Source of the DNA: Bacteroidaceae bacterium
GTDB lineage: Bacteria; Bacteroidota; Bacteroidia; Bacteroidales; Bacteroidaceae
DNA length: 64,000 nt
Assembly (NCBI GenBank): GCA_017631315.1
Contig: JAGBTN010000015.1
Span: 186,001-250,000, forward strand
Direction of reading: 5' to 3'
A program made the position numbers and the translations under genes. Below are positions 1,746-53,005 of this stretch, in pieces. Under the pieces are notes generated by a model, which was not told where the DNA came from, searched no databases, and saw only the letters and a list, made by a program, of their open reading frames with translations. Each line of letters starts with the position of its first letter. Within the stretch, counting starts at the first letter, position 1.

Positions 1746-1835
1746 ATAGGTTAACCTTTCCGGCAACAATGGTTAAGCATTCCGCCCATAATGGTTAACC
1801 TAATTGGCAATAATGGTTAACCTTTCCGGCAAGAC
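1746..1835 (+). repeat. 22-bp-phased GGTTAACC array, 4 units (array A)
   Basis: Cores lie at 1749-1756 (GGTTAACC), 1771-1778 (GGTTAAGC), 1793-1800 (GGTTAACC) and 1815-1822 (GGTTAACC), each exactly 22 bp after the last. The 14 bases between cores vary, but most carry a GGC-type triplet and then AAT. The array sits in the spacer before the CPBP protease gene. It is followed at about 1837 by CACTGCCTTTGT, a motif also found beside the copy at 34051. Confidence 0.85.
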
Positions 1836-1876
1836 AACCACTGCCTTTGTAAAACAAGAAAAAGCGAAAACTCACG

Positions 1877-2722
1877 ATGAATTGGCGCAAAATTACACCT
1901 GCACTACTCTCCCTGCTGGTCTTTCTGCTGGCACAAGCACTCATCCCCGCCGTGGCATTCGGCATCGGCACATTCGTCTCTCCCGAGTTCGGCACAGCAC
2001 TGCAAAAATTCCTCAACGGCGAAACAACCGACCTGCCACTCCTCGAACTGATGCCCGTCCCGATGTTCTCGCTCACCATAATGGCGACAAACATCATTGC
2101 CATACTGATATGCTACCGCCCACTGCGATACATCCGCCCCATCAAGGCAAGCGACTTCGGCACCATACGGTGGCAGACAGGCCTGCTCGCCATAGCCGGA
2201 GGCATACTCGGAGGCTTCAGCCTCTCCATCATGACCGAAAACATCGCCCTGCCCGACTCCATGATGCAAATGTCGATGGCCATGTCGAAAAGCATCTGGG
2301 GACTGCTCGCACTCGCCATCGTCGGCCCCATCACCGAAGAACTCCTCTTCCGCGAAGCCATCGAAGGCGAAATGCTGCGCCGAAAAGCCAGCCCATGGAC
2401 AGCAATCATCGTCTCCGCACTGGCCTTCAGCATCGTACACCTCAACCTCGCACAAGGGCTCTATGCACTGCCACTCGGCATCATGTTCGGCATCATACGC
2501 TACAAAACCGGCAACATCATCCTGCCCTCACTGCTCCACATCCTCAACAACAGCATCGTAGCACTGCAACTTTGCACCCTCGGAGAAGAGATGGCAGACC
2601 TCTCCTATGCCGAAATGTTCGGCGGAAACACAGCCGCACAAATCGCCATGCTCCTCTCCGGAATGCTCAGCATACTGCTCATCACACTTTTCTGGAACCA
2701 CACCACACCCAAAGCAGAATGA
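1877..2722 (+). CDS. CPBP family intramembrane metalloprotease
   Basis: The protein has 281 residues and multiple membrane segments, and belongs to the CPBP (CAAX-prenyl protease 2 / Abi-like) family. The three family motifs are visible: E154-E155-L-L-F-R159, H188-x-N190 and H221 followed by N224/N225 (SLLHILNNS). The paired glutamates and the two histidines form the metal site within the membrane. Bacterial members are linked to peptide maturation, immunity to self-produced peptides or surface anchoring, but most have no known substrate, and I cannot assign one here. It appears monocistronic: a 22-bp repeat array precedes it, and 208 bases with a promoter separate it from the next gene. Confidence 0.85.
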   Translation: MNWRKITPALLSLLVFLLAQALIPAVAFGIGTFVSPEFGTALQKFLNGETTDLPLLELMPVPMFSLTIMATNIIAILICYRPLRYIRPIKASDFGTIRWQTGLLAIAGGILGGFSLSIMTENIALPDSMMQMSMAMSKSIWGLLALAIVGPITEELLFREAIEGEMLRRKASPWTAIIVSALAFSIVHLNLAQGLYALPLGIMFGIIRYKTGNIILPSLLHILNNSIVALQLCTLGEEMADLSYAEMFGGNTAAQIAMLLSGMLSILLITLFWNHTTPKAE

Positions 2723-2849
2723 AAACAATCCACCCTCCCCAGGCAAGGAGAGCCTCATTTCTGTGTTAATTTTATTAAACCCATGTGGCAAAGTGTTAAA
2801 ATTCTTTAACCAAACACTACCGCAAGGCACATTTCCACACCCTAAATCG

Positions 2850-2857
2850 TATCTTTG
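2850..2857 (+). promoter_or_regulatory. -7 promoter element TATCTTTG
   Basis: A perfect TAnnTTTG element lies 73 bases before the ATG of the coiled-coil lipoprotein. I see no perfect TTTG at the expected -33 position; TTTC occurs nearby. Confidence 0.6.
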
Positions 2858-2930
2858 CAACTACTATCCCCCTAAAAGGGGCATACTATACCTAAAAAGA
2901 AATAACATAATTAATTTTTATATTACAAGT

Positions 2931-5900
2931 ATGAAAAACAAAATCACCAAACTTTTCATGTTGCTGGTTGCTGCAGCAAGCATGGGAGCGTTCGTATCCT
3001 GTAAGGACACAAACGAAGACCTGTACAACGAACTGCGTACAGAACTACTTAACGAAATCAACGAAAACACAACCCTTGCCAATGCGCTCGAAATACGCAT
3101 CAGCCAAGTGGAAGAACAAATCGAAGACTTAAAGAGCTGGAAAGCGCAGATGGAGGAATGGAAAAAGAGCATCAAATCATGCGACTGCCCGGATGTCAAC
3201 TCATGCACCTGTCCCAAAGATGCTGATAAACTTATTAAAGATTTGCAAGACTTGGTCAACCAAATTAAGCAAGATATTGAAGATGATGTTGAGCAAGACG
3301 ATTTGCTTGAAATTATCACCCAAATCAATTTCATAATTAACAACTATGCGACCATCGAACAAGTGACAACCCAGATCAACACGAGTCTGTCCATTTTGGA
3401 GCAAACCATCACAAAAAGAATAGATGATCTCCAAAAAGCACTTGAGGATGCCAAGTGCGGTTGCCCCGAAGATGCTGCAGAACGATTGCTTGAGTTGGAA
3501 CGATTCATGTCAGAGGCAAGAGAGGATATCAACACCGCATTAGCCCTCGTGGAAGACGTCAAGGGATTGCAAAAGTCTATTAAAGATTTACGAGAAACCA
3601 TTATTCCTGGAATAAACGACGAACTCCTTCGCTTAGAAGGACTAATCGGAGATAATAAGGATGAGATTGAAAAGATTAAAAAGACACTTGAAAAGATCGA
3701 TGAAAACGCAAAAAAAATAGACGATCTAAACAATGCGTTACAAGGCATTAAAGAAGATTTGAAAAATTATGCAACAAACGACGCTCTCTCCCTTGTCAGC
3801 GACAAAGCAAACGATGCATGGGAAGAGGCCGTCAAAGCAAAAGCCAAAGCAGACGCAGACAGCATACGCATCGATGCTTTAGAACAGGACCTCAAAAACA
3901 ATTATGTCAACATTACGGAATTCCAGGAAGCACTCAAAGCCCTTGAAGAAACCATAAACAATAAGATTCAAGACCTAAGCGATGAGCTTAAAGGTGAACT
4001 CGACAAAACAAACGAAACCGTTGACAGCCTCAAAACAAACTACGAATCCCTCTCTGAAGAAGTTAACGACCTGAAGGACGACCTCAAAGACTGCCAGGAA
4101 ACTTGCAAACAGAATCTCGAACTGGCTAAAGCATACACCGATCTCGAAATAGCGAAACTCAAAGGAGAACTCATGAAGGAGATCACAGAAAACACAGATA
4201 GCATTAATGCACTTCGAGAACGCCACGATGCAGATGTTAAACGACTCGAAGAAATGCTTCAAGAACTTAGCAATAAGATTGACAACATCGATTTGAGCGA
4301 AATCTATCAATGCCTCGACGACCTCAAAGAAGCAGACAGGCTTTTGAACGAACGCGTGGCTACCAACGAAAAGACTATCGGCGAACTTAAAGCAGACGTC
4401 GAAGCACTAAAGACAGACGTTACTGATTTGCAGAACCGCATTCAAAAAGCAGAAGAAACTCTCGCCGAACTTACAACCAAAATAGAACGTCTCACAGGTG
4501 ATGTTAAAGCAATCCAAGAATATCTGAGCAAGCAAGTAACCAGCATCATCATCCAGGGCACACACAATCCCCTGTTTGGCTCTCTCAGCATTCCCGGCAC
4601 AGACATCATGTCAACAAGCCTCGTCGCATTCTATGGCCTTCCCGTCAGCGACGTAGAATTCCCCACATCCGACGACGCAAACTATGTTCGCAAATCAGAA
4701 GCTCTCACAGACAAAGACATGGAAATGCTCGGAGGCCTCGAAGTATTCGAAGCACCCGCTAATCTCCCCCTCTTGAACGAAGGTGGCAACGCCGGCAAAG
4801 TATACGTTACCATCAACCCCAGCTCTGCTGACCTCACAGGTTTGAACCTGAGCATCGTCAACACTCTGGACGAAGAATCGCCCATCAAACTTTCTCCCAT
4901 CAAGAAATGTGAAGAGAAACTGCAAAGCGGATGGACACGTGCAAACAATGGCTTCTATGTAGCAGAAGCAAGTGTAACACCCAAAACCGTTATGACCGAA
5001 AATGGCGGACTTAACATCAACAAAGAGAACTTCTCCGAATTGTTCAAAGAAACAAAGGAACAGTTTGGCGATTTGGCAAAAGACTTTGATGCTGGCAAAC
5101 TCAACCTCAGCGAGCTGGCAACAGACGTTTATAGCGTAATCCGCGAACTGAAGGTTGACAAGAGCGGCCTTAAGTGCACATACACAACAACAGATGCCGA
5201 CGGAACCGAAAAGGAACACTCCGTATACTCTCAATACAATTTGGCTGCAACATTCCTGAATCCGCTTAATCTGAAATGGGGCAAAGACTTTAACTACGTG
5301 ACAATGCCTGGCTACGAACTTGCTGATAGCCTGCTGAACCGATTCTCCAACACTCTGAAAGACCAGGTTGACGTTATTCTTAATGATGTTATCAACATCG
5401 ATGGCATGCAAGACTTCATCGGTCATTTCCAGATTGACGAACTGACATATCTTGGCGAAGCATCAGAACTCATCAGCAGATTCGAGGCAAGAGTATCACA
5501 CATCGTATTGAACGGCATAGGCTATCAATTAGAAGTTCCCGGTGCAGGTGCCTTCGACGTTAAGTTCAACAAGAACTTGACAGCTAATGGTGCTGCCGTA
5601 TCAATTCCTGCAGAAGTCGCTTACGACGAAGACAACGTTACACTCTACAGAGCAGCTGTAGTAATTGGTGGCGACATTGTAAATGGCATGACTGCTACAC
5701 TCGTCGTTCCCGCCAGAGGCGTTGAAGACGAAGTCGTTGCCGCATATGCTAGTATACTATTGGCAGAAGAAAGTGTTTCTGTAACAGTTTCTGGCAACCA
5801 AATTACAATGACAACAACAGACGGCGAATACACTCTTGCCAACGTTAACGGAACATCCATCAACACCAACGACTGCACCGACAGACTCATCCTTCGCGAT

Positions 5901-6545: not shown

Positions 6546-6577
6546 TAACGACCTTTCAAACTAAAGAGATTACGATT

Positions 6578-7738: not shown

Positions 7739-7761
7739 TCATTGACATTCTGTAGTCAAAC

Positions 7762-7810: not shown

Positions 7811-7817
7811 TTAAAAC

Positions 7818-9041: not shown

Positions 9042-10238
9042 ATGAAAAGAACGAGTGTGTTTCTCCTGGCGATGTTGTTTACTACCGGTATCCTGGCACA
9101 AGACAGGATCGATTCCTTTATGAGCGAAGAGAAAATCCTCAGTCATATGGATGTGGGTGTGAATGCAGAGACTACAAGCTTGGGCATTGATGTGGGTGTG
9201 AATGTAGGCACTACGGGCCTGGGCATTGATGTGGGTGTGAATGTAGGCAATTATGTACGCCTGCGTGCCGGCTACAATTATATGCCACGCATCAGCATGA
9301 ATACCGACTTCACAGTCGAGACGAGCAAAGGCGGCATCGGCAATCTCATCGATAAAATAGACCGAATTGAGGAGAAATTCGAGGAGTACGGCATTGACAT
9401 GAACAGCGAATCCTTTGCCGAATACAAGGCTTTGTTCGACAAGTTCAGCAAGGTAGAGCGGAAGGATTATGTCACCATGGCACTTAAGCCGAATCTGCAT
9501 CAGTTCAAGTTCATGGTCGATGTTATGCCCTTCAGGAACAACAAGCATTGGAGTTTCACTGCCGGTTTCTTTGTCGGTCCGTCCACGGTGGGCTACGCCG
9601 AGAATCTGGAGAAAGAAGTCCTCATGCTGGAGGGGGTCAACGCATACAACAAAATCTACAGGGACTATCCCGAATATGGCATTAATGGCAGTTATCTCCA
9701 CCGTGTGGGCAAGGAGAAGGACGACCCGTTCTACAAGCATGGCCTTGCAGGCTTCTGCCTCGGCAGGTTCGCGGATGGCGATATGGCCTTGATGGTCCCC
9801 GGCGAGGATGCCTCGGCCAAGGCTGAAATGGTGGTAAACAAGGTGCGCCCCTATGTAGGCTTCGGCTATAACACTTCTCTGTCGGGAGACAAGAGATGGC
9901 GCCTGAATGTCGATGCAGGCGTGATGTTCCTTTGCGGTTCGCCAAGTGTTTATGTGGACAATGTCTATAAGTTCAACGCCGACGACATCTGCTTCGACGA
10001 GGAGGGAAGGTATGTGAGCGGCATGGGATTCGACATCGACGGCAACTACTATGGCGAGATCGTACGCTGGTTCGAGGAAGATTTGGAATACAAATACGTA
10101 GGCCAGCGGCTTGACCACGTTGACGTCGTGCACGACCTTCACGATACACCCGGCAAGGTGGGCAGAACCATAAACACCATCTCCAAGTTCAAGGTCTATC
10201 CGAACATCTCGGTAGGCATTTCCTATCGCCTTTTCTGA
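9042..10238 (+). CDS. Predicted outer-membrane beta-barrel protein with tandem-repeat N-terminus
   Basis: The protein has 398 residues with a cleavable signal (MKRTSVFLLAMLFTTGILAQ). Residues about 37-71 hold a 13-residue tandem repeat, DVGVNVGTTGLGI and variants. After it come alternating amphipathic strands (YVRLRAGYNYMPRI, WRLNVDAGVMFLCG) and a C-terminal strand ending in phenylalanine (ISVGISYRLF), the usual outer-membrane barrel ending recognised by the BAM complex. I know no named family for it. It closes the run of envelope genes that begins at 2931. The repeat could vary in copy number between strains. Confidence 0.65.
   Translation: MKRTSVFLLAMLFTTGILAQDRIDSFMSEEKILSHMDVGVNAETTSLGIDVGVNVGTTGLGIDVGVNVGNYVRLRAGYNYMPRISMNTDFTVETSKGGIGNLIDKIDRIEEKFEEYGIDMNSESFAEYKALFDKFSKVERKDYVTMALKPNLHQFKFMVDVMPFRNNKHWSFTAGFFVGPSTVGYAENLEKEVLMLEGVNAYNKIYRDYPEYGINGSYLHRVGKEKDDPFYKHGLAGFCLGRFADGDMALMVPGEDASAKAEMVVNKVRPYVGFGYNTSLSGDKRWRLNVDAGVMFLCGSPSVYVDNVYKFNADDICFDEEGRYVSGMGFDIDGNYYGEIVRWFEEDLEYKYVGQRLDHVDVVHDLHDTPGKVGRTINTISKFKVYPNISVGISYRLF
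9150..9254 (+). repeat. 39-bp in-frame tandem repeat (about 2.7 copies)
   Basis: Units run 9150-9188, 9189-9227 and a partial third 9228-9254, each opening with GATGTGGGTGTGAATG. The unit length of 13 codons keeps the reading frame, so copy number can change without breaking the protein. Confidence 0.85.
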
Positions 10239-13557: not shown

Positions 13558-13589
13558 GGGGCTGCGCCGTTTTGGCGCAGCCCCTTTTT
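13558..13589 (+). terminator. Rho-independent terminator of the LRR gene
   Basis: GGGGCTGCGCC (13558-13568) pairs perfectly with GGCGCAGCCCC (13574-13584) around a 5-base loop, and TTTTT follows. There is no T-tract on the other strand, so it acts for the plus-strand gene. Confidence 0.9.
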
Positions 13590-14144: not shown

Positions 14145-14606
14145 TTACTCGAGCCCCTGGATGGTGTCGGTGTTCTTGATGGTCTCGATGGCTTCGCCCT
14201 GTGCTTTGCGGCTGGGCACGAGTTGGAAGGTTGCCTCGTTGCGAAGGTTTCTGAAGGGCTTGCCTGGGGTCCAACTGACGTGTACGTCTTTGATGTTGGC
14301 AGGGCCGAATTCTTCGGTTGTCTTTGCGCCGATGGTCTTGAGGCGGGGCTGGAAGTCGCCCATGTCGCCGAGGCGTACGCGCTTGCCCTCGAGCATGAGT
14401 TCGCGCAGGCAGCCGAAGGCGATGGTGAGAAGGCCCACGATGTCGCCTTTCCCATATACGCTGCCGTGGGCGGCAATGTGTTCGGCAAACTTGTTGATGT
14501 CGAGCACCTCGCTCGCCTGCGCCATGCCATAGGCCTTGGTTTCCTGAATGTCGGCCTTACGTGTGCCGGGTTTTGTACTCATGATTGCAATACTGTAGTT
14601 AATCAT
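14145..14606 (-). CDS. HU-family DNA-binding protein (long, orphan-cassette type)
   Basis: The protein has 153 residues, starting at the ATG at 14606 (MINYSIAIMSTKPGTRKADI). It is longer than ordinary HU (about 90 residues) and belongs to the Bacteroidales HU-like family with an N-terminal extension. The core carries a helical part (VLDINKFAEHIAAHGSVYGK, DIVGLLTIAFGCLRELMLEG) followed by the beta arm start VRLGDMGDFQPRL, and a low-complexity tail. Upstream bases to about 14780 are AT-rich and hold no further gene. It is the first gene of the minus-strand cassette with the P5-like and smalltalk genes. The canonical HU gene lies only 370 bases away, so the two paralogues are neighbours. Confidence 0.8.
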   Translation of the reverse strand: MINYSIAIMSTKPGTRKADIQETKAYGMAQASEVLDINKFAEHIAAHGSVYGKGDIVGLLTIAFGCLRELMLEGKRVRLGDMGDFQPRLKTIGAKTTEEFGPANIKDVHVSWTPGKPFRNLRNEATFQLVPSRKAQGEAIETIKNTDTIQGLE

Positions 14607-14777: not shown

Positions 14778-14866
14778 GCAGAAAGGTTAACCTTTATGGG
14801 CGGAAAGGTTAAGCATTACGGCCATAATGGTTAAGCCTTCTCGGCAGAATGGTTAACCCTTTTCCG
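14778..14866 (+). repeat. 22-bp-phased GGTTAACC array, 4 units (array B)
   Basis: Cores lie at 14785-14792 (GGTTAACC), 14807-14814 (GGTTAAGC), 14829-14836 (GGTTAAGC) and 14851-14858 (GGTTAACC), all 22 bp apart. The array sits between the start of the HU-like cassette and the terminators of the hup gene. Confidence 0.85.
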
Positions 14867-14888: not shown

Positions 14889-14954
14889 AAAAAGCCCCTT
14901 CCCCAAAAGGAGGAAAGGGCAAAAAAAAGCCTCACCCTTGTGCAGGGAGAGGCT
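14889..14954 (-). terminator. Two terminators in tandem behind the HU gene
   Basis: Read on the minus strand, AGCCTCTCCCT and AGGGTGAGGCT pair (plus positions 14929-14954) and are followed by a T-tract (A run at 14921-14928). A second stem, GCCCTTTCC with GGAAGGGGC (plus 14894-14920, one G-U pair), is followed by TTTTT. Two consecutive hairpins suggest strict shielding of the cassette and repeat array from hup transcription. Confidence 0.8.
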
Positions 14955-14975: not shown

Positions 14976-15239
14976 TTAAACAGCCAACTCAGAGCCGGCC
15001 TTGAACTTCACCACCTTCTTTGCAGGAATGGTGATAGCCTCCTTAGTAGCAGGATTGATACCCTTGCGCTCGCCCTGTTCCTTTACAGAGAATGTACCGA
15101 AACCTACCAGAGCCACCTTGTCGCCAGCCTTTACAGCTGCAGTGATAGCGTCCAGAGTAGCCTCCAAAGCCTTCTTTGCATCAACCTTGCTCATGCCAGC
15201 GCCCTCAGCGATCTTGGCAACCAATTCAGTCTTGTTCAT
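14976..15239 (-). CDS. hup: HU DNA-binding protein
   Basis: The protein has 87 residues, the standard HU length. It begins MNKTELVAKIAEGAGMSKVD and carries the family signature GFGTFSVKEQGERKGINPAT and then KKVVKFKAGSEL. HU bends DNA non-specifically and compacts the nucleoid as a dimer. The gene is monocistronic: its own promoter lies at 15305-15335 and tandem terminators follow. It is the canonical HU of the window; the longer paralogue at 14145 is the cassette form. Confidence 0.95.
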   Translation of the reverse strand: MNKTELVAKIAEGAGMSKVDAKKALEATLDAITAAVKAGDKVALVGFGTFSVKEQGERKGINPATKEAITIPAKKVVKFKAGSELAV

Positions 15240-15304
15240 AAGTTAATCGTTAAGTTGTTTGTAATTAGAATATTTTAATTTCGCTATTTGCACCTTTTGC
15301 ATGA

Positions 15305-30180: not shown

Positions 30181-30270
30181 AATGCTTAACCATTATTGCC
30201 GAAAAGGTTAACCATTATGGGCAAAACCCTTAACCTTTCCGGGCAGAAAGGTTAACCTATTTTGGCAGAC
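30181..30270 (+). repeat. 22-bp-phased GGTTAACC array, 4 units (array C)
   Basis: Cores lie at 30184-30191 (GCTTAACC), 30206-30213 (GGTTAACC), 30228-30235 (CCTTAACC) and 30250-30257 (GGTTAACC), exactly 22 bp apart. The array fills the gap between the end of the purD transcript and the promoter of the glycosyltransferase genes. Confidence 0.85.
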
Positions 30271-34024: not shown

Positions 34025-34106
34025 ACAAGCACTGCCTTGTTGCCCAAATAGGTTAACCATTATAGCCAACAAGCACTGCCTAATTGACCGATTAGGCAGT
34101 GCTTGT
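34025..34106 (+). repeat. Single GGTTAACC unit framed by ACTGCC repeats and a 16-bp hairpin (site D)
   Basis: One core (GGTTAACC, 34051-34058) lies between two direct copies of ACAAGCACTGCCT (34025-34037 and 34069-34081). The second copy, extended by AAT, pairs perfectly over 16 bp with ATTAGGCAGTGCTTGT (34091-34106) around a 6-base loop; the first copy can pair with the same right arm over 13 bp. Neither strand has a T-tract after the stem, so it is not an ordinary terminator. It lies between the convergent rnhB and pyrH genes. Confidence 0.8.
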
Positions 34107-34172: not shown

Positions 34173-34880
34173 TCAGTTGTGCACCAGCGTCCCTATTTCC
34201 TCGCCGCTGAGCACTCGCTGCAAATTGCCCACGATGTCCATATTGAAAACATAGATGGGCAAATCGTTTTGCATGCACATGGCTGTCGCCGTAATGTCCA
34301 TCACCTTCAATCCTCTTGAGATAACCTCGCTGTAAGTGATGTCGTGGAACTTCGTCGCCGTTGGGTCCTTCTCCGGATCAGCCGTGTAGATACCATCCAC
34401 TCGGGTGCCCTTCAGCATCACATCGGCCTCAATCTCAATGCCTCGCAGCGAGGAGCCCGTGTCGGTTGTAAAGTAAGGGCTGCCCGTGCCGGCACTGAAG
34501 ATGACCACTTCGCCCTGTTCCATAGCCTCGATGGCCTTCCACTTGTTGTAGAACTCGCCTATGGGCTCCATGCGGATAGCCGTCATGACACGGTTCTTCT
34601 GCCCTATGGCACCCAGCGCACTGCTCAGGGCAAGCGAGTTGATAACCGTGGCACACATGCCCATCTGATCGCCCTTGACACGGTCGAAACCCTTGCCGGC
34701 ACCGGAAAGGCCACGGAAAATGTTGCCGCCGCCTATGACGATACCAATCTGCACACCCATGCTGGCCACGTCCTTTATCTGCTGAGCATACTCGTTGAGA
34801 CGCTTCACATCGATGCCATAGCCCTGCTCTCCCATCAGACTTTCACCGGAGAGTTTAAGAAGAATACGTTTGAATCTCAT
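34173..34880 (-). CDS. pyrH: UMP kinase
   Basis: The protein has 235 residues. It begins MRFKRILLKLSGESLMGEQG and has VIGGGNIFRG, DQMGMCATVINSLAL, SAGTGSPYFTTDT and VDGIYTADPEKDP, all standard for the bacterial hexameric UMP kinase that makes UDP from UMP. It is translationally coupled to birA: the birA stop and the pyrH start overlap by 4 bases (34877-34880). Confidence 0.97.
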   Translation of the reverse strand: MRFKRILLKLSGESLMGEQGYGIDVKRLNEYAQQIKDVASMGVQIGIVIGGGNIFRGLSGAGKGFDRVKGDQMGMCATVINSLALSSALGAIGQKNRVMTAIRMEPIGEFYNKWKAIEAMEQGEVVIFSAGTGSPYFTTDTGSSLRGIEIEADVMLKGTRVDGIYTADPEKDPTATKFHDITYSEVISRGLKVMDITATAMCMQNDLPIYVFNMDIVGNLQRVLSGEEIGTLVHN

Positions 34881-35817: not shown

Positions 35818-38508
35818 ATGAAACGTACGATTCTTTCTCTTCTGATGGTGACACTCACAGCCATTCTTCCCGTCAGAGCCAACAGTAGAAACAATTTTAT
35901 CAGCCTTGATTCACGCCTCAAACATGGCGGTAACCAGACATGGCACATGCTTCGTGCCGGAGATGCCCAGGCAACAGCATCGGAAATATCTACCATTGGA
36001 TTCGACACGAAAGGCTGGACAGAGGCAATTGTACCTGCAACTGTGCTGACGAACCTCGTGGAGCAGAAAGTTTACCCTGAGCCTTACTACGGACAAACCA
36101 ATAAACTTGCCAACAACATCATCCCCGATCTGGCAAAAGTGGGACACGAATTCTATACTTATTGGTTTAGAACCGAGTTCCAAGTGCCTGCCGAATATAA
36201 AGGAAAGCACATTTGGCTCGAACCGATGGGCATTAATTATCGGGCAGAAGTGTGGGTCAACGGACACATGATAGGACAGATGGCGGGCATGTTTAACAGC
36301 CAACCTTTCGACATTACCGACCGCGTGAAGCCCGGGCAGACTGCGGTTCTTGCCATTCGCGTAAAGCCTGTCGATGTGCCGGGCACTACGATGCCCAAGA
36401 GTTGGGGAGCGGCCGGCGAGTGGCACAATGGTGGTGATGGCTGGATTGGGCAGAACGTGACGCAACTTATGACTGTGGGTTGGGACTTTACCTTCGAGGA
36501 TGGTGTACGCGACCGCAACACCGGCATCTGGCGTTCGGTGCGTCTCTATGCCACAGGAGCCCAACAATTGCGCAGTCCTTATGTCTGCTCGGAACTGTCG
36601 AAGCCGAACTACGACAAGGCGAGCGAAACAGTGAGTGTGGAGGTTTGGAACCCCAATACGAGAGGCGGCGAGTGCTATGTGAGCGGAAGTATTGATGGTA
36701 CGGACATCACTTTCAAGTCGGAAAAGATTAAGTTGCAGCGTGGCGAGCATACGACGGTTACTTTCTCGCCGAAGGATTTTCCGCAGCTTGTCATTGAGAA
36801 TCCCCGTTTGTGGTGGCCGAAGAACAAGGGCCCTCAGAATCTTTATACGCTTCGTCTTACCCTTACCGACAGCAAGGGTGGTGTGATGGACAGTCTTTCT
36901 ACGCGTTTCGGCATACGCGAAATTGTTGCCAGCCGCGAGACGCCCGACAAGTCGAAGGTCTTCATTGTGAACGGCCACAAGACCTTTGTCCGTGGCAACA
37001 ACTGGATTCCTGAGGCGATGCTCCGCACCGATGACAGGCGAATGGAGACGGAGTTGGCATATACCGACCAGTCGGGTCTGAACTTGTTGCGTTTGTGGGG
37101 TGGCGGCATCGCTGAGAGCGACCGCTTCTATGAACTGTGTGATGAGTATGGCATTATGGTCTGGCAGGAGTTTTGGATGACGGGCGACACGCGCCATCCT
37201 ATGGACGAATCGCTTTATTTGGCTAACGTGGAGAACACCATGAAGCGCATCCGCAACCATCCTTCCATTATTATATATGTGTCGAGCAACGAGAGTACGG
37301 CTGTTACGGGTGCGAAGGAACTCATCCAGAGCCTTGCTCCCGATGTGCCTTACCAGATGCAGAGCGAATGCGACGGTGTGCACGACGGCAGCCCCTACAA
37401 GCAGGTGAACCCGATGCGCCACTACGAGAACACGGCTTCCGACCGTGGCAGTCGTGTGGATGGCTTTAATCCCGAGTACGGTGCGCCCACCTTGCCCATC
37501 GTGGAGAGCCTTCGCGAGATGATGCCTGCCGAGGACCTCTGGCCCATCAACAAGGCAACGTGGGACTACATGGACGGCAACGGTTTCCACTTGATGAGTA
37601 CTCTCTACAAGGATATGGTGAACCAGTATGGCGAAAGCCACAACATCGACGAGTTTGCACGCCGTGGACAGATGGTGGGAGCCATGAACAGCAAGAGCAT
37701 CTGGGAGGTGTGGAATGAACACAAACTGCAGTATGGCGACCGCTGGTGTTCTGGCCTGTTGTTCTGGTATCACAACTGCCCCAACTGGCAGGTATGTGCC
37801 CGCATGTGGGACTGGTTCCTGGAGCCGACGGCTTCGCTGTACCACACGATGCATGCCCTGGAGCCTGTCCACATACAATACGACTACCTGACGAACACCG
37901 TGAGCGTGAGCAACGACTACATCGAACCGCAGAAGGGTCTCCTTGCCAAGGCTGAGGTTTACGACCTGCAGAGCCGCAAGCGGAACACCTTCACGGCAAA
38001 GGTGGACGTTCCTGCCGACGGTGTGGCGAACGACATTCTCACTGTCGGGTTCCCCGACGACATAACGCCCGTCCACTTCATCGCCCTGGAACTGACCGAC
38101 GCCAAGGGCAACGTGGTGAGCCGCAATTTCTACTGGCGCTCCAACAGCAAGTATGAGGGCAAGAACACGGTGACCGGCCCCTGCACAGGCGGTTTCGAAG
38201 CACTCGGCACCATGCCCGAGGCCAAGCCCTCGGTAGTGGCTCGCCGCCTCGCCGACAAGGATGGATACTGCCACTGGCAGGTGACGCTGAAGAACAGCAG
38301 CCGGCGCATCGCCTTCTTCTGCCAACTGCTCCTCACCGATGCCAACGACAAAGCCGTACACGGCACCTTCTACAGCGACAACTTCCTGACGCTGCTGCCC
38401 GGACAGAAGCAAGTCATCAACATCCGTACACCCAAGCACGACGGCACAGACTACCGCCTGCGTTTCTGCGAAAACATGGGCACTGTGCGCAACGTAAACA
38501 TCAAATAG
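35818..38508 (+). CDS. GH2 family exo-beta-glycosidase (beta-mannosidase / exo-glucosaminidase type)
   Basis: The protein has 896 residues with a signal peptide (MKRTILSLLMVTLTAILPVR). The GH2 order is clear: a sugar-binding jelly roll (YTYWFRTEFQVP, YRAEVWVNGHMIGQ), immunoglobulin-like domain (LWWPKNKGPQNLYTLRLTL), then a TIM barrel with FVRGNNWIPEAML, LNLLRLWGGGIAESDRFYEL and GIMVWQEFWM. The acid/base is probably E492 in VSSNES and the nucleophile E553 in NPEYGAP. These long GH2 forms include exo-beta-mannosidases and exo-beta-glucosaminidases that finish N-glycan cores; the presence of GH92 in the same window favours mannose. The enzyme should be periplasmic. It is monocistronic; a repeat array follows. 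Confidence 0.88.
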   Translation: MKRTILSLLMVTLTAILPVRANSRNNFISLDSRLKHGGNQTWHMLRAGDAQATASEISTIGFDTKGWTEAIVPATVLTNLVEQKVYPEPYYGQTNKLANNIIPDLAKVGHEFYTYWFRTEFQVPAEYKGKHIWLEPMGINYRAEVWVNGHMIGQMAGMFNSQPFDITDRVKPGQTAVLAIRVKPVDVPGTTMPKSWGAAGEWHNGGDGWIGQNVTQLMTVGWDFTFEDGVRDRNTGIWRSVRLYATGAQQLRSPYVCSELSKPNYDKASETVSVEVWNPNTRGGECYVSGSIDGTDITFKSEKIKLQRGEHTTVTFSPKDFPQLVIENPRLWWPKNKGPQNLYTLRLTLTDSKGGVMDSLSTRFGIREIVASRETPDKSKVFIVNGHKTFVRGNNWIPEAMLRTDDRRMETELAYTDQSGLNLLRLWGGGIAESDRFYELCDEYGIMVWQEFWMTGDTRHPMDESLYLANVENTMKRIRNHPSIIIYVSSNESTAVTGAKELIQSLAPDVPYQMQSECDGVHDGSPYKQVNPMRHYENTASDRGSRVDGFNPEYGAPTLPIVESLREMMPAEDLWPINKATWDYMDGNGFHLMSTLYKDMVNQYGESHNIDEFARRGQMVGAMNSKSIWEVWNEHKLQYGDRWCSGLLFWYHNCPNWQVCARMWDWFLEPTASLYHTMHALEPVHIQYDYLTNTVSVSNDYIEPQKGLLAKAEVYDLQSRKRNTFTAKVDVPADGVANDILTVGFPDDITPVHFIALELTDAKGNVVSRNFYWRSNSKYEGKNTVTGPCTGGFEALGTMPEAKPSVVARRLADKDGYCHWQVTLKNSSRRIAFFCQLLLTDANDKAVHGTFYSDNFLTLLPGQKQVINIRTPKHDGTDYRLRFCENMGTVRNVNIK

Positions 38509-38536
38509 AAAAACATCCACTGGCCTTATGCTCCGG

Positions 38537-38625
38537 AATGGTTAACCTTTCCCCAAATAATGGTTAAGCATTCCGGCCATAATGGTTAACCCTTTTGGCA
38601 ATAATGGTTAACCATTCCCGGCGAC
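38537..38625 (+). repeat. 22-bp-phased GGTTAACC array, 4 units (array E)
   Basis: Cores lie at 38540-38547 (GGTTAACC), 38562-38569 (GGTTAAGC), 38584-38591 and 38606-38613 (both GGTTAACC), each 22 bp after the last. The array starts about 30 bases after the GH2 stop. Confidence 0.85.
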
Positions 38626-38673
38626 AAGCAACAAGGCACACCGAACCAACCCATAAGACAATACCCGAAAACC

Positions 38674-39843
38674 ATGAAATGCCAAGAAAAATTCTTTGAG
38701 AAATACAAACGCGAACCAGAAGCCATTGCCTTCTGCCCCTACCGCGTCTGCCCCATCGGCGCACACAGCGACGCCAACCTCGGCAAGATAACCGGCCTCG
38801 CCATCGACAAGGGCATACACATCGCCTACAGCCCCAAGCACAACGGCGTAGTGGAACTCAGTTCCCTGCAGTTCGACAAACGCGCACAGTTCCACGTCCG
38901 CGACGTGCCACGACACAAAGAAAACGACTGGGCAGACTACCTGCGGGGCGTCACACTCAAACTCGGCGAACGCTATCCCCTCACGTCCGGACTGAGCGGC
39001 ATCATCGAAGGCAGCCTCCCCATCGGCGGCCTCTCCTCGTCGGCAGCCGTAGCCCTCGTCTTCCTCAAAGCACTCTGCCACGTCAACAACATACACCCCG
39101 AACCACAAGAACTGATACGCATCTCCGTCGCATCCGAAAACGACTACGTCGGCGTCAACAGCGGCAAACTCGACCAAAGCTGCGAAGTCTACTCCAAAAA
39201 AGACCACCTCCTCTACCTCGACACCAAGACCGACCAGTACGAACTCATACCCACCCACCCGCAGATGAAGCCCTACCGCATAGCCATCTTCTTCAGCGGC
39301 ATCGAACGCACACTGGCCGGCAGCAAATTCAACATGCGCATAGACGAAGCACGAAGCGCCGCCTACGCACTCATGGCATACACCGGCATCGAATACGGCA
39401 AGTTCCACGAAGCCAACCTCAGAGCCGTGCCACGACAAATCTACGAACAATACAAACTCCAACTGCCCGAAACCTGGCGCAGAAGAGCAGAACACTGGTA
39501 CACCGAATACGACCGCGTAGAACAAGGAGCCGAAGCCTGGCGCCAAGGAGACCTGCAAACCTACGGCCAACTCAGTTTCGAAAGCGGACACAGCAGCATC
39601 GTCAACTGGGAAACAGGCTCGCCCGAACTCAAAGCACTCTACGACATCATGCGACACACCGACGGCATCTACGGCGGACGATTCAGCGGAGCAGGATTCA
39701 AAGGCTGCTGCATGGCACTCATCGACCCAGCATACGAAGAAAACATCACCCGACAAGTCACCACAGAATACCTCAAGATATTCCCACAACTCAAAGACAA
39801 ATACAGCTACCACATCTGCCAAAGCGCCGACGGAGTACTCTGA
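38674..39843 (+). CDS. GHMP-family sugar kinase (galactokinase-like)
   Basis: The protein has 389 residues. The N-terminus has FCPYRVCPIGAHSDANLGKI, comparable with the galactokinase signature (APGRVNLIGEHTDYN) but with H-S-D; the ATP-binding GHMP loop is LPIGGLSSSAAVALVF near residues 115-130; and GRFSGAGFKGCCMAL near the end is the third motif. Such proteins phosphorylate the anomeric carbon of galactose, galacturonate or a related sugar. The altered first motif suggests a substrate other than plain galactose. It is followed 26 bases later by a sugar nucleotidyltransferase, so the pair would turn a free sugar into an NDP-sugar. Confidence 0.82.
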   Translation: MKCQEKFFEKYKREPEAIAFCPYRVCPIGAHSDANLGKITGLAIDKGIHIAYSPKHNGVVELSSLQFDKRAQFHVRDVPRHKENDWADYLRGVTLKLGERYPLTSGLSGIIEGSLPIGGLSSSAAVALVFLKALCHVNNIHPEPQELIRISVASENDYVGVNSGKLDQSCEVYSKKDHLLYLDTKTDQYELIPTHPQMKPYRIAIFFSGIERTLAGSKFNMRIDEARSAAYALMAYTGIEYGKFHEANLRAVPRQIYEQYKLQLPETWRRRAEHWYTEYDRVEQGAEAWRQGDLQTYGQLSFESGHSSIVNWETGSPELKALYDIMRHTDGIYGGRFSGAGFKGCCMALIDPAYEENITRQVTTEYLKIFPQLKDKYSYHICQSADGVL

Positions 39844-45488: not shown

Positions 45489-45489
45489 G

Positions 45490-46017
45490 GTGGACATCCT
45501 GTTGCTCGCACTCCTGGCCGTCGGCTTCGTGCTGGGGCTCATGTCAGGGGCCGTCAAGCAGATTGTCTCGCTTGCTGCCCTCGTGTTAGGCTTCGCCGTT
45601 GCCAGCCTCTACAGCCAAGAGCTGAGCAATGTGCTGGCCGATGTACTGCCAATGCCCGACGTCTGCCGCATAGTGGCCTTCGTGCTGCTGTGGGTCATCG
45701 TGATTCTCGTGGCACGCCTGACCGGAGCACTGCTCACGTCGCTGCTCGACAAAGTGCTGGCCATAGGAATGCTCAACCGCCTGCTGGGCGGCATCCTCGG
45801 CACAGCAAAATTCGCACTCGTGCTAGGAACACTCATCTGGCTCCTCTCCACAACCAACCTGATAAGCCAAGAGACAATGCAGACATCGCAACTCTGCCGT
45901 CCGCTCAAAGCAATGCCCGAATACACATATAACGTAATAAAAAAACACGCCCCACAAGCGGGCCAAGAAATAAGCATGTGCCTCACCCGAAAAAAAGGTA
46001 TGCCTAATGAGCAATAA
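45490..46017 (+). CDS. cvpA: CvpA family membrane protein
   Basis: The protein has 175 residues and begins with GTG at 45490, one base after the infB stop. Four hydrophobic helices and the motif LMSGAVKQIVSLAALVLGFA match CvpA (colicin V production accessory protein family). The family is widespread; in enterobacteria CvpA is tied to envelope stress and bile resistance, and its molecular role is unknown. In Bacteroidota it is often near infB or sufB. A repeat array begins at its stop codon. Confidence 0.85.
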   Translation: MDILLLALLAVGFVLGLMSGAVKQIVSLAALVLGFAVASLYSQELSNVLADVLPMPDVCRIVAFVLLWVIVILVARLTGALLTSLLDKVLAIGMLNRLLGGILGTAKFALVLGTLIWLLSTTNLISQETMQTSQLCRPLKAMPEYTYNVIKKHAPQAGQEISMCLTRKKGMPNEQ

Positions 46018-46080
46018 TGCTTAACCATTCGGGCCAAAAAGGTTAACCATTATCCACATAATGCTTAACCCTTTTGGCAA
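46016..46080 (+). repeat. 22-bp-phased GGTTAACC array, 3 units (array F)
   Basis: Cores lie at 46019-46026 (GCTTAACC), 46041-46048 (GGTTAACC) and 46063-46070 (GCTTAACC), 22 bp apart. The first core begins one base after the cvpA stop codon, and the array separates that operon from sufB. Confidence 0.85.
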
Positions 46081-47553: not shown

Positions 47554-47562
47554 AAAAACACC

Positions 47563-48315
47563 ATGTTACAGATAAAAGACCTACACGCCAGCATCAACGG
47601 CAAAGAAATACTCAAAGGCATCAACCTCAACGTCCAAGACGGCGAAATACACGCCGTAATGGGACTCAACGGAGCAGGCAAAAGCACACTCTCCAACGTC
47701 ATCGTCGGACACCCAGCCTACGAAGTCACACAAGGAACCATAAACTTCAACGGGAAAAACATCCTCACACTCAAACCCGAAGAACGCGCACACGAAGGAA
47801 TCTTCCTAAGCTTCCAACAACCCACAGAAATCCCAGGCGTCTCAATGGTCAACTTCATGCGTGCAGCACTCAATGCCAAACGCAAATACAAAGGACAAGA
47901 ACCCATGCCCGCAGGCGACTTCCTCAAACTCATGCGCGAAAAAAGACAAATCGTAGAACTCGACAGCAAACTCACAAGCCGAAGCGTGAACGAAGGCTTC
48001 TCAGGAGGCGAAAAGAAACGCAACGAAATATTCCAAATGGCAATGCTCGAGCCCACACTCTGCATACTCGACGAAACAGACAGCGGACTCGATGTCGACG
48101 CACTCCGCGTAGTGGCAGAAGGATTCAACAAACTGAGACGACCGGAAACAAGTGCCATCGTCATCACACACTACCAACGACTGCTCGACTATATCAAACC
48201 AGACATCGTACACGTCCTCATCGACGGACGCATCGTCAAGACAGCAGGACCCGAGCTCGCCACAGAGATAGAAAACCGAGGCTTCGACTGGATAAAAGAG
48301 GAGGTAGGACTGTGA
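47563..48315 (+). CDS. sufC: Fe-S cluster assembly ATPase SufC
   Basis: The protein has 250 residues. The ABC ATPase motifs are Walker A GLNGAGKSTLSNVI, the signature FSGGEKKRNEIFQMAML, and Walker B LCILDETDSGLDVDAL. SufC binds SufB and SufD and drives cluster assembly by ATP hydrolysis. It begins 9 bases after sufB and its stop overlaps the sufD start (GTGA). Confidence 0.96.
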   Translation: MLQIKDLHASINGKEILKGINLNVQDGEIHAVMGLNGAGKSTLSNVIVGHPAYEVTQGTINFNGKNILTLKPEERAHEGIFLSFQQPTEIPGVSMVNFMRAALNAKRKYKGQEPMPAGDFLKLMREKRQIVELDSKLTSRSVNEGFSGGEKKRNEIFQMAMLEPTLCILDETDSGLDVDALRVVAEGFNKLRRPETSAIVITHYQRLLDYIKPDIVHVLIDGRIVKTAGPELATEIENRGFDWIKEEVGL

Positions 48316-50737: not shown

Positions 50738-50793
50738 CCTCAGCCATCCCCTCGCCTACCCCCTTCTGCAACGCCCTACAGCCTTCCGTCCGG

Positions 50794-50840
50794 AAAGGTT
50801 AAGCATTCTGCCAATAATGGTTAAGCATTATTGCAATAAA
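50794..50840 (+). repeat. 22-bp-phased GGTTAAGC array, 2 units (array G)
   Basis: Cores lie at 50797-50804 and 50819-50826 (both GGTTAAGC), 22 bp apart, between the convergent sufS and GH97 genes. Confidence 0.8.
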
Positions 50841-50866
50841 GGCGAGGGGGAAAATCGTCCTCGCCC
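50836..50866 (-). terminator. Probable terminator of the GH97 gene
   Basis: On the minus strand GGCGAGG (plus 50859-50865) pairs with CCTCGCC (plus 50841-50847), followed by TTTATT. The stem is short but sits directly after the stop. Confidence 0.5.
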
Positions 50867-50876
50867 TTCGTGTCTG

Positions 50877-52814
50877 TTACTCTATCACACCACACCATCC
50901 ACCATTGCGAACCAGGTGCAGACGGAGCTTCGTCTGTGGCGTAACGTCCTGCTCGCCACGCTTGTAATCCACTGCTATGCGGTGGGCATTACGGCCGTCC
51001 TGGAAGTAAGTGAGGTGCCCATTTTTGCCGATGAAATCGAGAGAAATCTCAATGTCCTGTGCCTTGCTGCCCGTCATGGCACCAATGTACCACTTGTCGC
51101 CCTTGCGCTTTGCCACCACATAGTGTTCGCCAGCCTTGGCCGAGAGCACCCGTGTGTCGTCCCAAGTAGTGGGGACGGATGCCATGAAACGCGTACATTC
51201 TTCCTCGCGGAGGTAACGTGTGGGGCTGTCGGCGAGCATCTGCAGACCGCTCTCGAAGCAGACATACAGTGCCATCTGGTAGGCACGTGTGCCACTGCCC
51301 ATCGGCATGGAGCCCGTACCTCTGTTGTCCTCCGGCTGCGCACTCTGCATGGAGCCGGGCGTAAAGTCCATTGCTCCTACGGCATTGCGTATGTATGGGA
51401 GCCAGATGGTGTTGTCCGGATGGCATCCGCCACCTTGTTCCATGCCACGCACACCTTCGTAACTGATGAGGTTGGGCAAACGCTGTTCCAGTCCTGCCGG
51501 TTTGAAAGAGCCGTGGAAGTCGATGAGAAGTTTATGCTTGGCACACTCACGGGTGATGCGTTCATAGTAGTTCACCATCCATTGGTCGCTGTGGTCCATG
51601 AAATCGACCTTCAAGCCCTTCACGCCCATCTTGGCATAATAGGAAATCACGTCGGGGTGTTGTTCCACCGTGAGCCACGTCAGCCAAAGCACAATACCAA
51701 CGTTTCGGGCAGCGCCGTACTCCACAAGTTCCCTGACGTCTATCTCGTCGCGGGTTGTAAACGGGTCCTGAACGCGTTTGTTCCAGCCCTCGTCCAGCAA
51801 GATGTACTCCACTCCGAACTTCGAAGCACAGTCGATGATATACTTATATGTATCGTTGTTGATGCCAGCCACGAAGTCCACATCCCAAATGGTCCAGTGG
51901 TTCCACCAGTCCCAGTTGACCTTTCCGGGCTTAATCCACGACGTGTCGTCCAGTTCGCACTTGCCTGCCAGCACAACTTCCATTTGGTTTTCGGCAATCG
52001 TGGCGTCTGTTCCTATTACAGCAAAGCGCCATGGCAGTGTGCGCTGTGCATCGGTGCGGGCAATGCAGTCGTACTCCTTGGTGATGTTCCAGCCGCGGTC
52101 GCCGCGCGGTTCCCATGCCTGAGGCGACTTGGGGAAGACGGACTTGAAGCCATTGCTGCCCGTAGAGTAGAGGAACATATTGGGGTAGTCGCGCACATCA
52201 CTCTCGGAGAAGAGCACCTTCGTGCCCTTGGGGCTCTCGAGAAGAATGGGCAGGTAGGTCATCTCGTCGCCTATGCGATACTCGGAGGTAGAGATGTGTG
52301 TGTAGGGATTCTCGTAGGAAGTCATGAAACCGCGTGTCTTGGAGATGTGTGCCGTGAAGGCTTCGGGCAGATTGAGTTCGACACCTTCGTTCACGATGTC
52401 TGTCTGTCCCTTCCCTTTGTTGATGGCAAAACGGTAGGCAACGCCATTGTCGTAGGCACGCATATCGACGGAGATGCCGCCCTTGAACGCGAGTGTCAAC
52501 TGATTGGCGCAGTTGGGGACCTCGGCATACTTCAGGGGCACAACGGGACGAATCACTTCGTCCACCTTGCTACGCTTTGCGCTGCTCAACCGAGGCTTAG
52601 TGCCAAACGTCTCTGCTCCCACTTGAAGGCTGATGGGGCAGTCCTTCAAGATCTGCTCCTCGCCATAGAACACGCTGTAGGTGAGGCGGTCGCCAATGGT
52701 GACCTCCAGTTTGATGTTACCACTCGGAGAGGCCAACGTCTCCACCTTGTCTGCATAAACACTGCCAATGCCCAACAGCATGAGCATAAGCACCAAAAAG
52801 TTTTTTCTCATCAT
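50877..52814 (-). CDS. GH97 family glycoside hydrolase (retaining type)
   Basis: The protein has 645 residues from MMRKNFLVLMLMLLGIGSVY, a signal peptide; the open frame upstream continues to 52925 but lies above the promoter. The GH97 N-terminal beta-sandwich (SPSGNIKLEVTIGDRLTYSV) precedes the TIM barrel (VNWDWWNHWTIWDVDF, GVEYILLDEGWNKRVQDP, LKVDFMDHSDQWMVNYYERI). The aspartate in KVDFMD corresponds to the nucleophile of the retaining alpha-galactosidase-like GH97 branch, while the inverting SusB branch lacks it; LISYEGVRGMEQ carries the acid/base region. The enzyme is probably a periplasmic alpha-galactosidase or similar. It stands alone, without SusC/SusD partners. Confidence 0.88.
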   Translation of the reverse strand: MMRKNFLVLMLMLLGIGSVYADKVETLASPSGNIKLEVTIGDRLTYSVFYGEEQILKDCPISLQVGAETFGTKPRLSSAKRSKVDEVIRPVVPLKYAEVPNCANQLTLAFKGGISVDMRAYDNGVAYRFAINKGKGQTDIVNEGVELNLPEAFTAHISKTRGFMTSYENPYTHISTSEYRIGDEMTYLPILLESPKGTKVLFSESDVRDYPNMFLYSTGSNGFKSVFPKSPQAWEPRGDRGWNITKEYDCIARTDAQRTLPWRFAVIGTDATIAENQMEVVLAGKCELDDTSWIKPGKVNWDWWNHWTIWDVDFVAGINNDTYKYIIDCASKFGVEYILLDEGWNKRVQDPFTTRDEIDVRELVEYGAARNVGIVLWLTWLTVEQHPDVISYYAKMGVKGLKVDFMDHSDQWMVNYYERITRECAKHKLLIDFHGSFKPAGLEQRLPNLISYEGVRGMEQGGGCHPDNTIWLPYIRNAVGAMDFTPGSMQSAQPEDNRGTGSMPMGSGTRAYQMALYVCFESGLQMLADSPTRYLREEECTRFMASVPTTWDDTRVLSAKAGEHYVVAKRKGDKWYIGAMTGSKAQDIEISLDFIGKNGHLTYFQDGRNAHRIAVDYKRGEQDVTPQTKLRLHLVRNGGWCGVIE

Positions 52815-52856
52815 ATCTGTAGTTTTAGTTTTGTGGCAAAATTGCTTTCTGGAGAA

Positions 52857-52864
52857 CAAAGATA
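52857..52864 (-). promoter_or_regulatory. -7 promoter element TATCTTTG (GH97)
   Basis: CAAAGATA on the plus strand reads TATCTTTG on the minus strand, 43 bases before the GH97 start. Confidence 0.6.
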
Positions 52865-52919
52865 ATGAATTATTTTTACTTTTCAGCACACTCCGATTTA
52901 TTTTTGCAGGCAAGCGCAA

Positions 52920-53005
52920 AAACATCTACTGCCAAACAGGCAATAATGGTTAACCATTCCGGGCATAATGGTTAACCTGTTTGGGGAACAAGGCAGTAGA
53001 TGTTT
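52920..53005 (+). repeat. GGTTAACC pair (array H) enclosed by a 14-bp inverted repeat
   Basis: AAACATCTACTGCC (52920-52933) and GGCAGTAGATGTTT (52992-53005) are perfect inverted repeats 58 bases apart. Between them lie two cores, 52948-52955 and 52970-52977 (both GGTTAACC), 22 bp apart. The element sits between the GH97 promoter and the pnp terminator. It resembles a miniature inverted-repeat element; I see no flanking target duplication. Confidence 0.85.

What the first reader, a model, noticed from the sequence alone, without database searches (positions are those of the whole stretch)
1746..53005. A dispersed 22-bp-phased GGTTAACC repeat family at eight intergenic sites
Eight gene-free sites (1746, 14778, 30181, 34051, 38537, 46016, 50794, 52948) carry 4, 4, 4, 1, 4, 3, 2 and 2 copies of a core, mostly GGTTAACC with GGTTAAGC and GCTTAACC as variants, 24 copies in all. 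In every multi-copy array the core-to-core distance is exactly 22 bp, while the 14 bases between cores vary except for a weak GGC..AAT pattern. Constant spacing with variable filler suggests selection on position rather than plain copying: 22 bp is about two helical turns, so the palindromic cores all face one side of the DNA. A dimeric DNA-binding protein, a chromosome-organising signal or a boundary element would fit. All sites lie between transcription units, none inside an operon. I know no described family of this form.
Basis: partly seen in the sequence, partly recalled or inferred. Interest (0 to 1): 0.85.

Follow-up and report, generated by a model that had tools for sequence, protein, structure and literature searches.

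The report
Phased 22-bp arrays at gene ends
Behind many genes of this uncultured gut bacterium sit short arrays of mirror-image DNA motifs repeated in 22-base steps; related species keep such arrays at the same places but spell them with different motifs, which suggests an undescribed kind of boundary element between genes.

Summary
In 464 kb of this genome and one sister species, 311 of 313 core pairs lying 9-69 bp apart are 22, 44 or 66 bp apart. Four cores per array is usual, and arrays lie just behind stop codons.

The same genome has other cores (ACACGTGT, TCTGCAGA, TACATGTA, GGTGTGGC) at the same step, including an array missed at 56,683. Relatives use others again. Sister species G023 has arrays behind the orthologues of all eight multi-core window sites. 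In G008, 6 of 6 testable independent arrays are present, spelled AACGTGTT; in G067, 5 of 7, four spelled CCGCGTGCGG. Place and phase persist while sequence turns over.

Tests for REP/RAYT, MITE ends, RNA stems and ordinary terminators were negative or weak; substitutions tend to keep base-pair strength rather than RNA pairing. Best reading: a DNA-level, protein-bound, strand-symmetric boundary element. Protein and function are inferred, not shown. Seven literature searches in open-licence papers found no description.

The parts
1749..1822 (.). array of 4 cores, 22-bp step
   Evidence: G023 orthologue 4 cores, G008 and G067 arrays of other cores
14785..14858 (.). array of 4 cores, 22-bp step
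   Evidence: arrays behind the orthologous gene in G023, G008, G067
30184..30257 (.). array of 4 cores (third is CCTTAACC), 22-bp step
   Evidence: arrays in G023 and G008, none in G067
34051..34058 (.). lone GGTTAACC core
   Evidence: no array at the orthologous place in G023; G067 has a TACATGTA array behind the gene 34173-34880
38540..38613 (.). array of 4 cores, 22-bp step
   Evidence: arrays in G023, G008, G067
45997..46004 (.). GGTATGCC, another core exactly 22 bp before the next array's first core
   Evidence: sequence; mosaic count
46019..46070 (.). array of 3 cores, 22-bp step
   Evidence: 3 cores in G023, none in G067, no G008 orthologue
50797..50826 (.). array of 2 cores, 22-bp step; the G023 orthologue has 4 cores
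52948..52977 (.). array of 2 cores inside a longer inverted repeat (ACATCTACTGCC ... GGCAGTAGATGT)
   Evidence: arrays in G023, G008, G067

Best explanation
These are boundary elements between transcription units that act as double-stranded DNA. Shown: each is a phased array in which a mirror-image core recurs every 22 bp (about two helical turns) with a second mirror centre half way; four units are usual; arrays sit behind stop codons and are densest per gap between convergent genes; they stay at the same gene ends between species while the core sequence is replaced, at least once one unit at a time and in phase; cores are conserved, centres of the spacers are not. Inferred: a multimeric DNA-binding protein occupies the array, one dimer per mirror centre, all on one face of the helix, and this filament works in both directions, blocking RNA polymerase that runs out of either neighbour and/or confining supercoils. 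The vocabulary turns over by unit exchange among arrays and/or by change in the protein's specificity.
For: Exact spacing: 311 of 313 core pairs. Other cores lie in phase with GGTTAACC-type cores: 15 at 22 bp and 12 at 44 bp, at most 4 at any other offset from 12 to 47. Period 22 stands out in sequence-blind scans of G000, G023, G067 and G008. Place: closer to the upstream stop in 31 of 36, 14 of 17 and 4 of 4 same-strand arrays in G000+G023, G067 and G008. Site conservation: 14 of 14 placed arrays of G000 also in G023; for the window 8 of 8 in G023, and as independent arrays 6 of 6 in G008 and 5 of 7 in G067, against 1 of 9 and 3 of 11 for gene ends without array in G000 (pooled p=0.0004). 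DNA-level constraint: transitions 28% of 72 changes in cores and arms against 65% of 265 in flanks (p=4e-8), strength-keeping exchanges 46% against 21%. No excess of G.U over A.C in sense-strand pairs in four of five genomes. Outer T-runs are equal on both sides of same-strand arrays.
Against: No protein is known; HU-HIG copy number does not track arrays. Outer A-runs and T-runs (37 and 26 of 63 in G000) are what bidirectional intrinsic terminators would have. In G423 G.U exceeds A.C, 28 to 17, and that genome has 6 period-21 arrays besides 8 of period 22, so the step is not 22 everywhere. Ten of 13, 8 of 11 and similar shares of conserved ends are not reached in a wider sample: array-bearing ends gave only 12 of 25 in G008 and G067 (p=0.07 against 4 of 20) and 2 of 20 in G047, G001 and G022. 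Strength-keeping changes could come from exchange between units instead of selection.
Confidence: 0.42

Rival explanations
1. Bidirectional RNA terminators or 3'-end RNA stabilisers: the self-complementary cores pair with one another in the transcript and a U-run follows in either direction.
For: Location behind stops and in convergent gaps; A-run on the left and T-run on the right of many arrays (37 and 26 of 63, opposite runs 3 and 6); all folded regions form hairpins between cores (30 regions folded); G.U over A.C in G423.
Against: Exact spacing is not needed for stems. G.U is below A.C in G000, G023, G067, G008. Complementarity of the two halves of a filler is below expectation at positions 3 and 6, partly through polarity. 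T-runs are as strong on the upstream as the downstream side. Separate terminator hairpins are as frequent beside arrays (5 of 47) as at ends without (9 of 85), so arrays do not replace them; with the array included 8 of 47 score as terminators. No Rfam match. The small control for the G.U test had only 21 hairpins (G.U 7, A.C 4).
Confidence: 0.27
2. A dispersed repeat (minisatellite or MITE-like) without host function that spreads and is homogenised, and survives where it does no harm, behind genes.
For: Hundreds of similar copies in one species, different families in others; over-dispersed filler changes (mean 2.53, variance 5.39 of 51) fit unit exchange; the BrickBuilt minisatellite-MITE of P. 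gingivalis is always intergenic (PMC4596501, abstract, sections 5, 7 part 1, 8).
Against: Sites are shared between species. Conservation is position-specific: core 0-7%, centre 22-35%. No shared ends: outside the array no position exceeds 0.43 bit until the outer half-site and enclosing stems are not above control, 1 of 56. No Y1 transposase in six of seven genomes searched (assemblies are incomplete).
Confidence: 0.19
3. Chromosome-scale organisation (loading sites for gyrase or a nucleoid protein, as recalled for BIME in E. coli), placed behind genes because positive supercoils gather there.
For: Core families differ by region: on C1+C3+C15 30 GGTTAACC-type and 6 ACGTG-type arrays, on C8+C10+C12+C16 5 and 15 (p=2.8e-5); family counts follow GC content (Spearman 0.73 and -0.59 over 33 stretches).
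Against: Contig groups were formed after seeing the counts and 7 arrays of other type were left out; the pattern may reflect base composition or local gene conversion; origin and terminus were not located.
Confidence: 0.12

Closest known systems
BrickBuilt MITE/minisatellite of Porphyromonas gingivalis (PMC4596501)
   Same: Same order; short tandem units, dispersed, always intergenic; some lie between convergent genes
   Different: 23-nt units with indels, 1 to about 23 units, 19 copies, IS5-like terminal inverted repeats, leader and tail; no sequence turnover at fixed sites described in what I read
REP / BIME elements with RAYT transposase (recalled; PMC3733652, PMC2817692 seen as listings)
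   Same: Palindromic, intergenic, hundreds of copies, near gene ends (recalled)
   Different: No Y1 transposase in six of seven genomes; GTAG/CTAC is depleted in arrays, 2.8 against 5.8 per kb; strict 22-bp step; sites shared across species with other cores
Uptake-sequence terminators of Haemophilus/Neisseria type (passages of PMC5217627)
   Same: One genome-wide word in mirrored pairs at 3' ends of genes
   Different: No phased 4-unit arrays; no evidence here for uptake or for RNA stems
Cooperative protein arrays such as plasmid iterons, ARG boxes, ParR repeats (recalled)
   Same: Sites about two helical turns apart, phased, cooperative
   Different: Those are single loci or regulons; here hundreds of gene ends, vocabulary turns over, protein unknown

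Membership tests
REP/BIME | RAYT (Y1_Tnp, PF01797) in the genome | tested here: not met
   0 matches in G000, G023, G067, G008, G001, G022; 2 in G047; assemblies incomplete
REP/BIME | GTAG or CGTC tag at the foot of the palindrome | tested here: not met
   GTAG/CTAC 2.82 per kb in arrays, 5.80 in the sampled genome; CGTC not tested
REP/BIME | High-copy palindromes between genes | tested here: met
MITE (BrickBuilt type) | Shared terminal inverted repeats | tested here: not met
   No shared ends in 42 four-unit arrays; enclosing stems 1 of 56, not above control
MITE (BrickBuilt type) | Occupied and empty sites, target duplication | tested here: inconclusive
   14 of 14 placed sites occupied in G023; target duplications not tested
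Intrinsic (Rho-independent) terminator | Stem selected as RNA, followed by U-run | tested here: inconclusive
   U-runs present on both sides; no G.U signature in four of five genomes; only 8 of 47 array ends score as terminator, 9 of 85 without array
Known RNA family (Rfam 15) | Match to a family | tested here: not met
   0 matches in the window at gathering score; 0 at E 1 for 38400-38800
Cooperative protein-binding array | Helically phased dyad sites | tested here: met
Cooperative protein-binding array | Bound by a specific protein | not testable with these tools
   Needs pull-down, footprinting or ChIP

The most novel reading that the evidence does not exclude
A general boundary system of some Bacteroidales that is conserved by geometry and not by sequence: most convergent gene pairs are separated by a two-turn-phased array occupied by a protein that reads phase and base-pair strength more than one word, acting as a two-way roadblock terminator or supercoil insulator. 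Its vocabulary is rewritten genome-wide between species, unit by unit and in phase, while the sites stay put: concerted evolution of hundreds of loci under fixed geometry.
Probability: 0.2. Interest if true: 0.92.

Novelty: categorically new. Interest (0 to 1): 0.8.

Why it matters
If the reading holds, bacteria of a major gut order mark the ends of transcription units with an architecture conserved by geometry and place rather than by sequence, a new kind of non-coding element. It would make two questions testable: how these bacteria, where about one in ten sampled gene ends shows an ordinary hairpin terminator by my criteria, separate neighbouring transcripts; and how hundreds of dispersed sites can change their sequence together while keeping phase. 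Even if the arrays prove to be terminators, a two-way, helically phased terminator with a changing vocabulary would be unusual.

Tried and rejected
RNA covariation across fillers and cores: complementarity is below expectation at positions 3 and 6, partly because units have a polarity; it neither supports stems nor cleanly excludes them.

Filler inversion (shufflon-like): striking in L039:17906 filler 3 and L048:12695 filler 1, but only 2 of 51 orthologous fillers were flagged.

Polarity tied to transcription: no clear tie (++ 13 positive, 6 negative, 2 zero; -- 5 and 7; +- 4, 5, 2; -+ 3, 4, 1). One unexplained asymmetry: in 10 divergent arrays outer T counts differ between the two sides, 3.9 against 5.5, p=0.004.

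REP/RAYT and MITE ends: not supported. Enclosing stems as at 52,948 are not general (1 of 56). HU-HIG proteins as binder: copies do not track arrays (G001 12 and G058 11 where I found 1 and 0 arrays at the stricter scores; G000 8, G022 2).

TTAA-based phylum search: 12 of 395 genomes match; G000 108, the others 1 or 2, in the range of the controls. Fifteen genomes of other families of the order, 177 kb: 0 period-22 arrays. In the own genus 24 of 61 match TTAA x4, many at control level.

Literature: seven searches ran in open-licence PMC papers; no listing described such arrays. PMC4596501: outline/abstract, sections 5, 7 (part 1), 8. PMC5217627: passages. All others: listings only. Subscription papers and preprints are not covered. 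BIME, iteron, ARG-box and ParR features are recalled.
Full report
WHAT WAS CHECKED. The eight sites and 24 cores are in the window as described; the excess over chance is large, 40 near-matches against 16.6 expected. The step is exact: in the window, 200 kb more of its genome (G000) and 200 kb of a sister species (G023), 313 pairs of SSTTAASS cores lie 9-69 bp apart and 311 of them are 22, 44 or 66 bp apart. That count does not depend on how arrays were defined. Clusters spanning four units dominate: 23 of 33 multi-core clusters in 264 kb of G000, 19 of 28 in 200 kb of G023.

THE ORGANISM. The window is G000:C15:186001-250000 of a 2.68-Mb assembly in 21 contigs, 86.6% complete. A three-core GGTTAACC search of named genomes returned 30 stretches: 21 in a Bacteroidaceae MAG from roe deer colon (RGIG4268), 6 in one from sheep rumen (RGIG6660) and one each in a Tannerella sp., a Prevotellaceae and a Chitinophagaceae MAG; records of the window's own genome may be left out there. 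The two-core pattern occurs in 2 of 41 searched genomes, G000 and G023.

ANATOMY. Outward from each TTAA the half-site reads about (C/G)(C/G)(A/T)TT(A/C/T)(T/C); two mirrored half-sites meet around a 4-base centre such as TGCC, GGGC or GGCA, so a 22-bp unit has two mirror centres 11 bp apart. Units have a polarity with no clear tie to gene strand. At the outer ends the half-sites turn into an A-run on the left and a T-run on the right: in G000, 37 of 63 arrays have 4 or more A on the left and 26 of 63 have 4 or more T on the right, 12 have both, opposite runs are 3 and 6. In G067, G008 and G423 such runs are rarer (9 and 6 of 33; 4 and 2 of 11; 2 and 3 of 6).

MORE THAN ONE VOCABULARY. A scan of periods 12-60 without regard to sequence finds period 22 alone standing out in G000 (28 hits, mean of other periods 0.26), G023 (31, 0.15), G067 (35 in 260 kb, 0.34) and G008 (13 in 120 kb, 0.26), less in G047 (6 in 120 kb, 0.17). 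In G423, from another family of the order, it gives 8 hits in 200 kb (mean of others 0.47), but period 21 gives 6 there, all without an open frame of 366 nt, so that genome has arrays of both steps; 21 bp is also about two turns. Small samples of G470, G306 and G314 gave 2 hits each, and 15 genomes of other families none. Cores differ: GGTTAACC (G000, G023), AACGTGTT (G008, G067, and second in G000 and G023), CCGCGTGCGG and TACATGTA (G067), ACTTAAGT (G047), ACGCGCGT (G001), GAAACTTTWGTTTC and GGCACAACCGTGCC (G423). The pattern TTAACGTG-N14-TTAACGTG matches in 13 of 61 genus genomes, in some no more than its control. In G000 itself arrays with TCTGCAGA, ACACGTGT, TACATGTA or GGTGTGGC share the step, one of them in the window at 56,683. 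Of 28 arrays of G000 without GGTTAACC-type cores, 19 have a TTG(S)CAA-type spacer by a loose pattern with no background count. Other cores lie in phase with GGTTAACC-type cores: 15 cases at 22 bp and 12 at 44 bp, at most 4 at any other offset from 12 to 47.

PLACE. Of 61 multi-core arrays, 36 lie in same-strand gaps, 12 in convergent, 8 in divergent, 5 at edges, 0 inside genes; the 160 gaps of 110 bp or more are 97, 27 and 36. In same-strand gaps 31 of 36 are closer to the upstream stop. In G067 there are 12 arrays, two of them in one gap, for 15 convergent gaps over 110 bp, and 1 of 35 lies inside a predicted gene; in G008 5 arrays for 7 convergent gaps. In 653 kb of G000 there are 18 arrays for 34 convergent, 33 for 117 same-strand and 12 for 39 divergent gaps, 9 at edges and 2 overlapping a predicted gene; same-strand arrays are closer to the stop in 27 of 33. 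In G423 3 of 5 are. Genes come from my own script, and missed small genes may explain part of the divergent class.

PERSISTENCE AND TURNOVER. Of 33 G000 multi-core arrays, 30 had 700-bp flanks; 14 could be placed in the fetched part of G023 and all 14 have an array there, 11 with the same number of cores. In 18 hand-paired arrays (69 units) changes per position were 0-7% in the core, 0-7% in the TT and AA steps, 12-20% at the other arm positions and 22-35% in the four central bases; the alignment was gapless, and one pair (L041:120, L050:16673) has a one-base difference in length. For the window, orthologues of the gene ends were sought in three genomes. In G023 all 8 multi-core sites, the missed one included, have arrays: 6 by the period score, 46,019 and 52,948 by their 3 and 2 cores. 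In G008 7 of 7 gene ends with an orthologue and in G067 6 of 8 have arrays; 50,797 and 52,948 share one gap there, so the independent arrays are 6 of 6 and 5 of 7. The same end thus carries GGTTAACC in G000 and G023, AACGTGTT in G008 and, in G067, CCGCGTGCGG (four arrays) or CACGTG (site 56,683). Gene ends that lack an array in G000 gave 1 of 9 and 3 of 11; pooled 11 of 13 against 4 of 20, p=0.0004, G067 alone p=0.14. A separate draw of 15 of 24 array-bearing ends, 13 of them outside the window, gave 12 of 25 in G008 and G067 (p=0.066) and 1 of 8, 0 of 6 and 1 of 6 in G047, G001 and G022; controls there 1 of 8, 0 of 4, 0 of 6. Rows were kept only with at least 50% identity over 55 residues reaching the C-terminus: 45 of 75 array and 38 of 75 control combinations. 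One control gene (34,173) neighbours the lone core at 34,051. At one orthologous unit the core changed from GGTTAAGC to GGTGTACC together with its filler, in phase (L048:1724 and L056:7617).

DNA OR RNA. Between G000 and G023, 28% of 72 changes in cores and arms are transitions against 65% of 265 in the mostly coding flanks (p=4e-8); exchanges that keep base-pair strength (C<->G, A<->T) are 46% against 21%. The same bias in the fast central bases (33% transitions of 63) suggests that unit exchange contributes. On the sense strand of same-strand arrays G.U is not above A.C in G000, G023, G067 and G008 (108/178, 79/95, 52/74, 8/14); in G423 it is (28/17). The outer T-runs are as strong upstream as downstream (5.03 and 4.89 of 10, 35 arrays). 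Ordinary hairpin terminators are as frequent beside arrays (5 of 47) as at ends without (9 of 85). Each result is indirect, and the A/T-runs keep the terminator reading alive.

REGIONS. GGTTAACC-type arrays prevail in higher-GC and ACGTG-type in lower-GC stretches (Spearman 0.73 and -0.59 over 33 stretches, not independent); by contig group 30/6 against 5/15, 7 arrays of other type left out, groups formed after seeing the counts.

CONCLUSION. I judge a protein-bound boundary element most likely (0.42), bidirectional RNA terminators next (0.27), a dispersed repeat without function 0.19, chromosome organisation 0.12. No protein, no transcript data and no experiment stand behind any of these. Seven literature searches and Rfam gave no described family; the nearest is BrickBuilt (PMC4596501), which differs in unit length, ends, copy number and indels. 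I call the class categorically new with reserve: if the arrays prove to be terminators it would be a new variant of a known kind.

Noticed in passing
window 14223-14603 and 14982-15242: Two HU-HIG DNA-binding protein genes flank the array at 14,785; the family has 8 matches in G000 and 2-13 in the other 11 genomes searched. Copy number does not track arrays.
   Followed up: partly
window 50877-52787: A gene between arrays 50,797 and 52,948 is absent from the gap in G008 and G067, where the two flanking genes lie about 160-180 bp apart with one array between them; in G023 the gap is 2.4 kb. The 52,948 array may have come with that gene.
   Followed up: partly
L037:5016-5300: In sheep-rumen MAG RGIG6660 three different 22-bp array families follow one another within about 300 bp.
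   Followed up: no
L242:11232, L242:17461, L244:15887, L244:16451, L246:4626, L247:10875: G423 has intergenic-looking arrays with a 21-bp step besides those with 22 bp; L242:11232 and L246:4626 are nearly the same sequence.
   Followed up: partly
G378, G048 and G050 (call rows only): Control patterns hit there: AATT x4 at 22-bp step 43 times in G378 and 18 in G048, GTGCAATT pairs 20 and 12 times in G050, which hints at further 22-bp array families.
   Followed up: no
L017:6440-6800: An uncultured Chitinophagaceae MAG has a long array of GGGTTAACCC-like units at 22-bp step.
   Followed up: no
window 53145-53229 and 9150-9249: Tandem repeats of 27 bp (3.1 copies) and 39 bp (2.6 copies) within predicted genes; the first encodes an Arg/Pro/Glu/Gly-rich C-terminus.
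   Followed up: no
window 13558-13584 and 14894-14920: Two strong intrinsic-terminator-like hairpins; the second lies between the stop of gene 14976-15239 and the array at 14,785.
   Followed up: no
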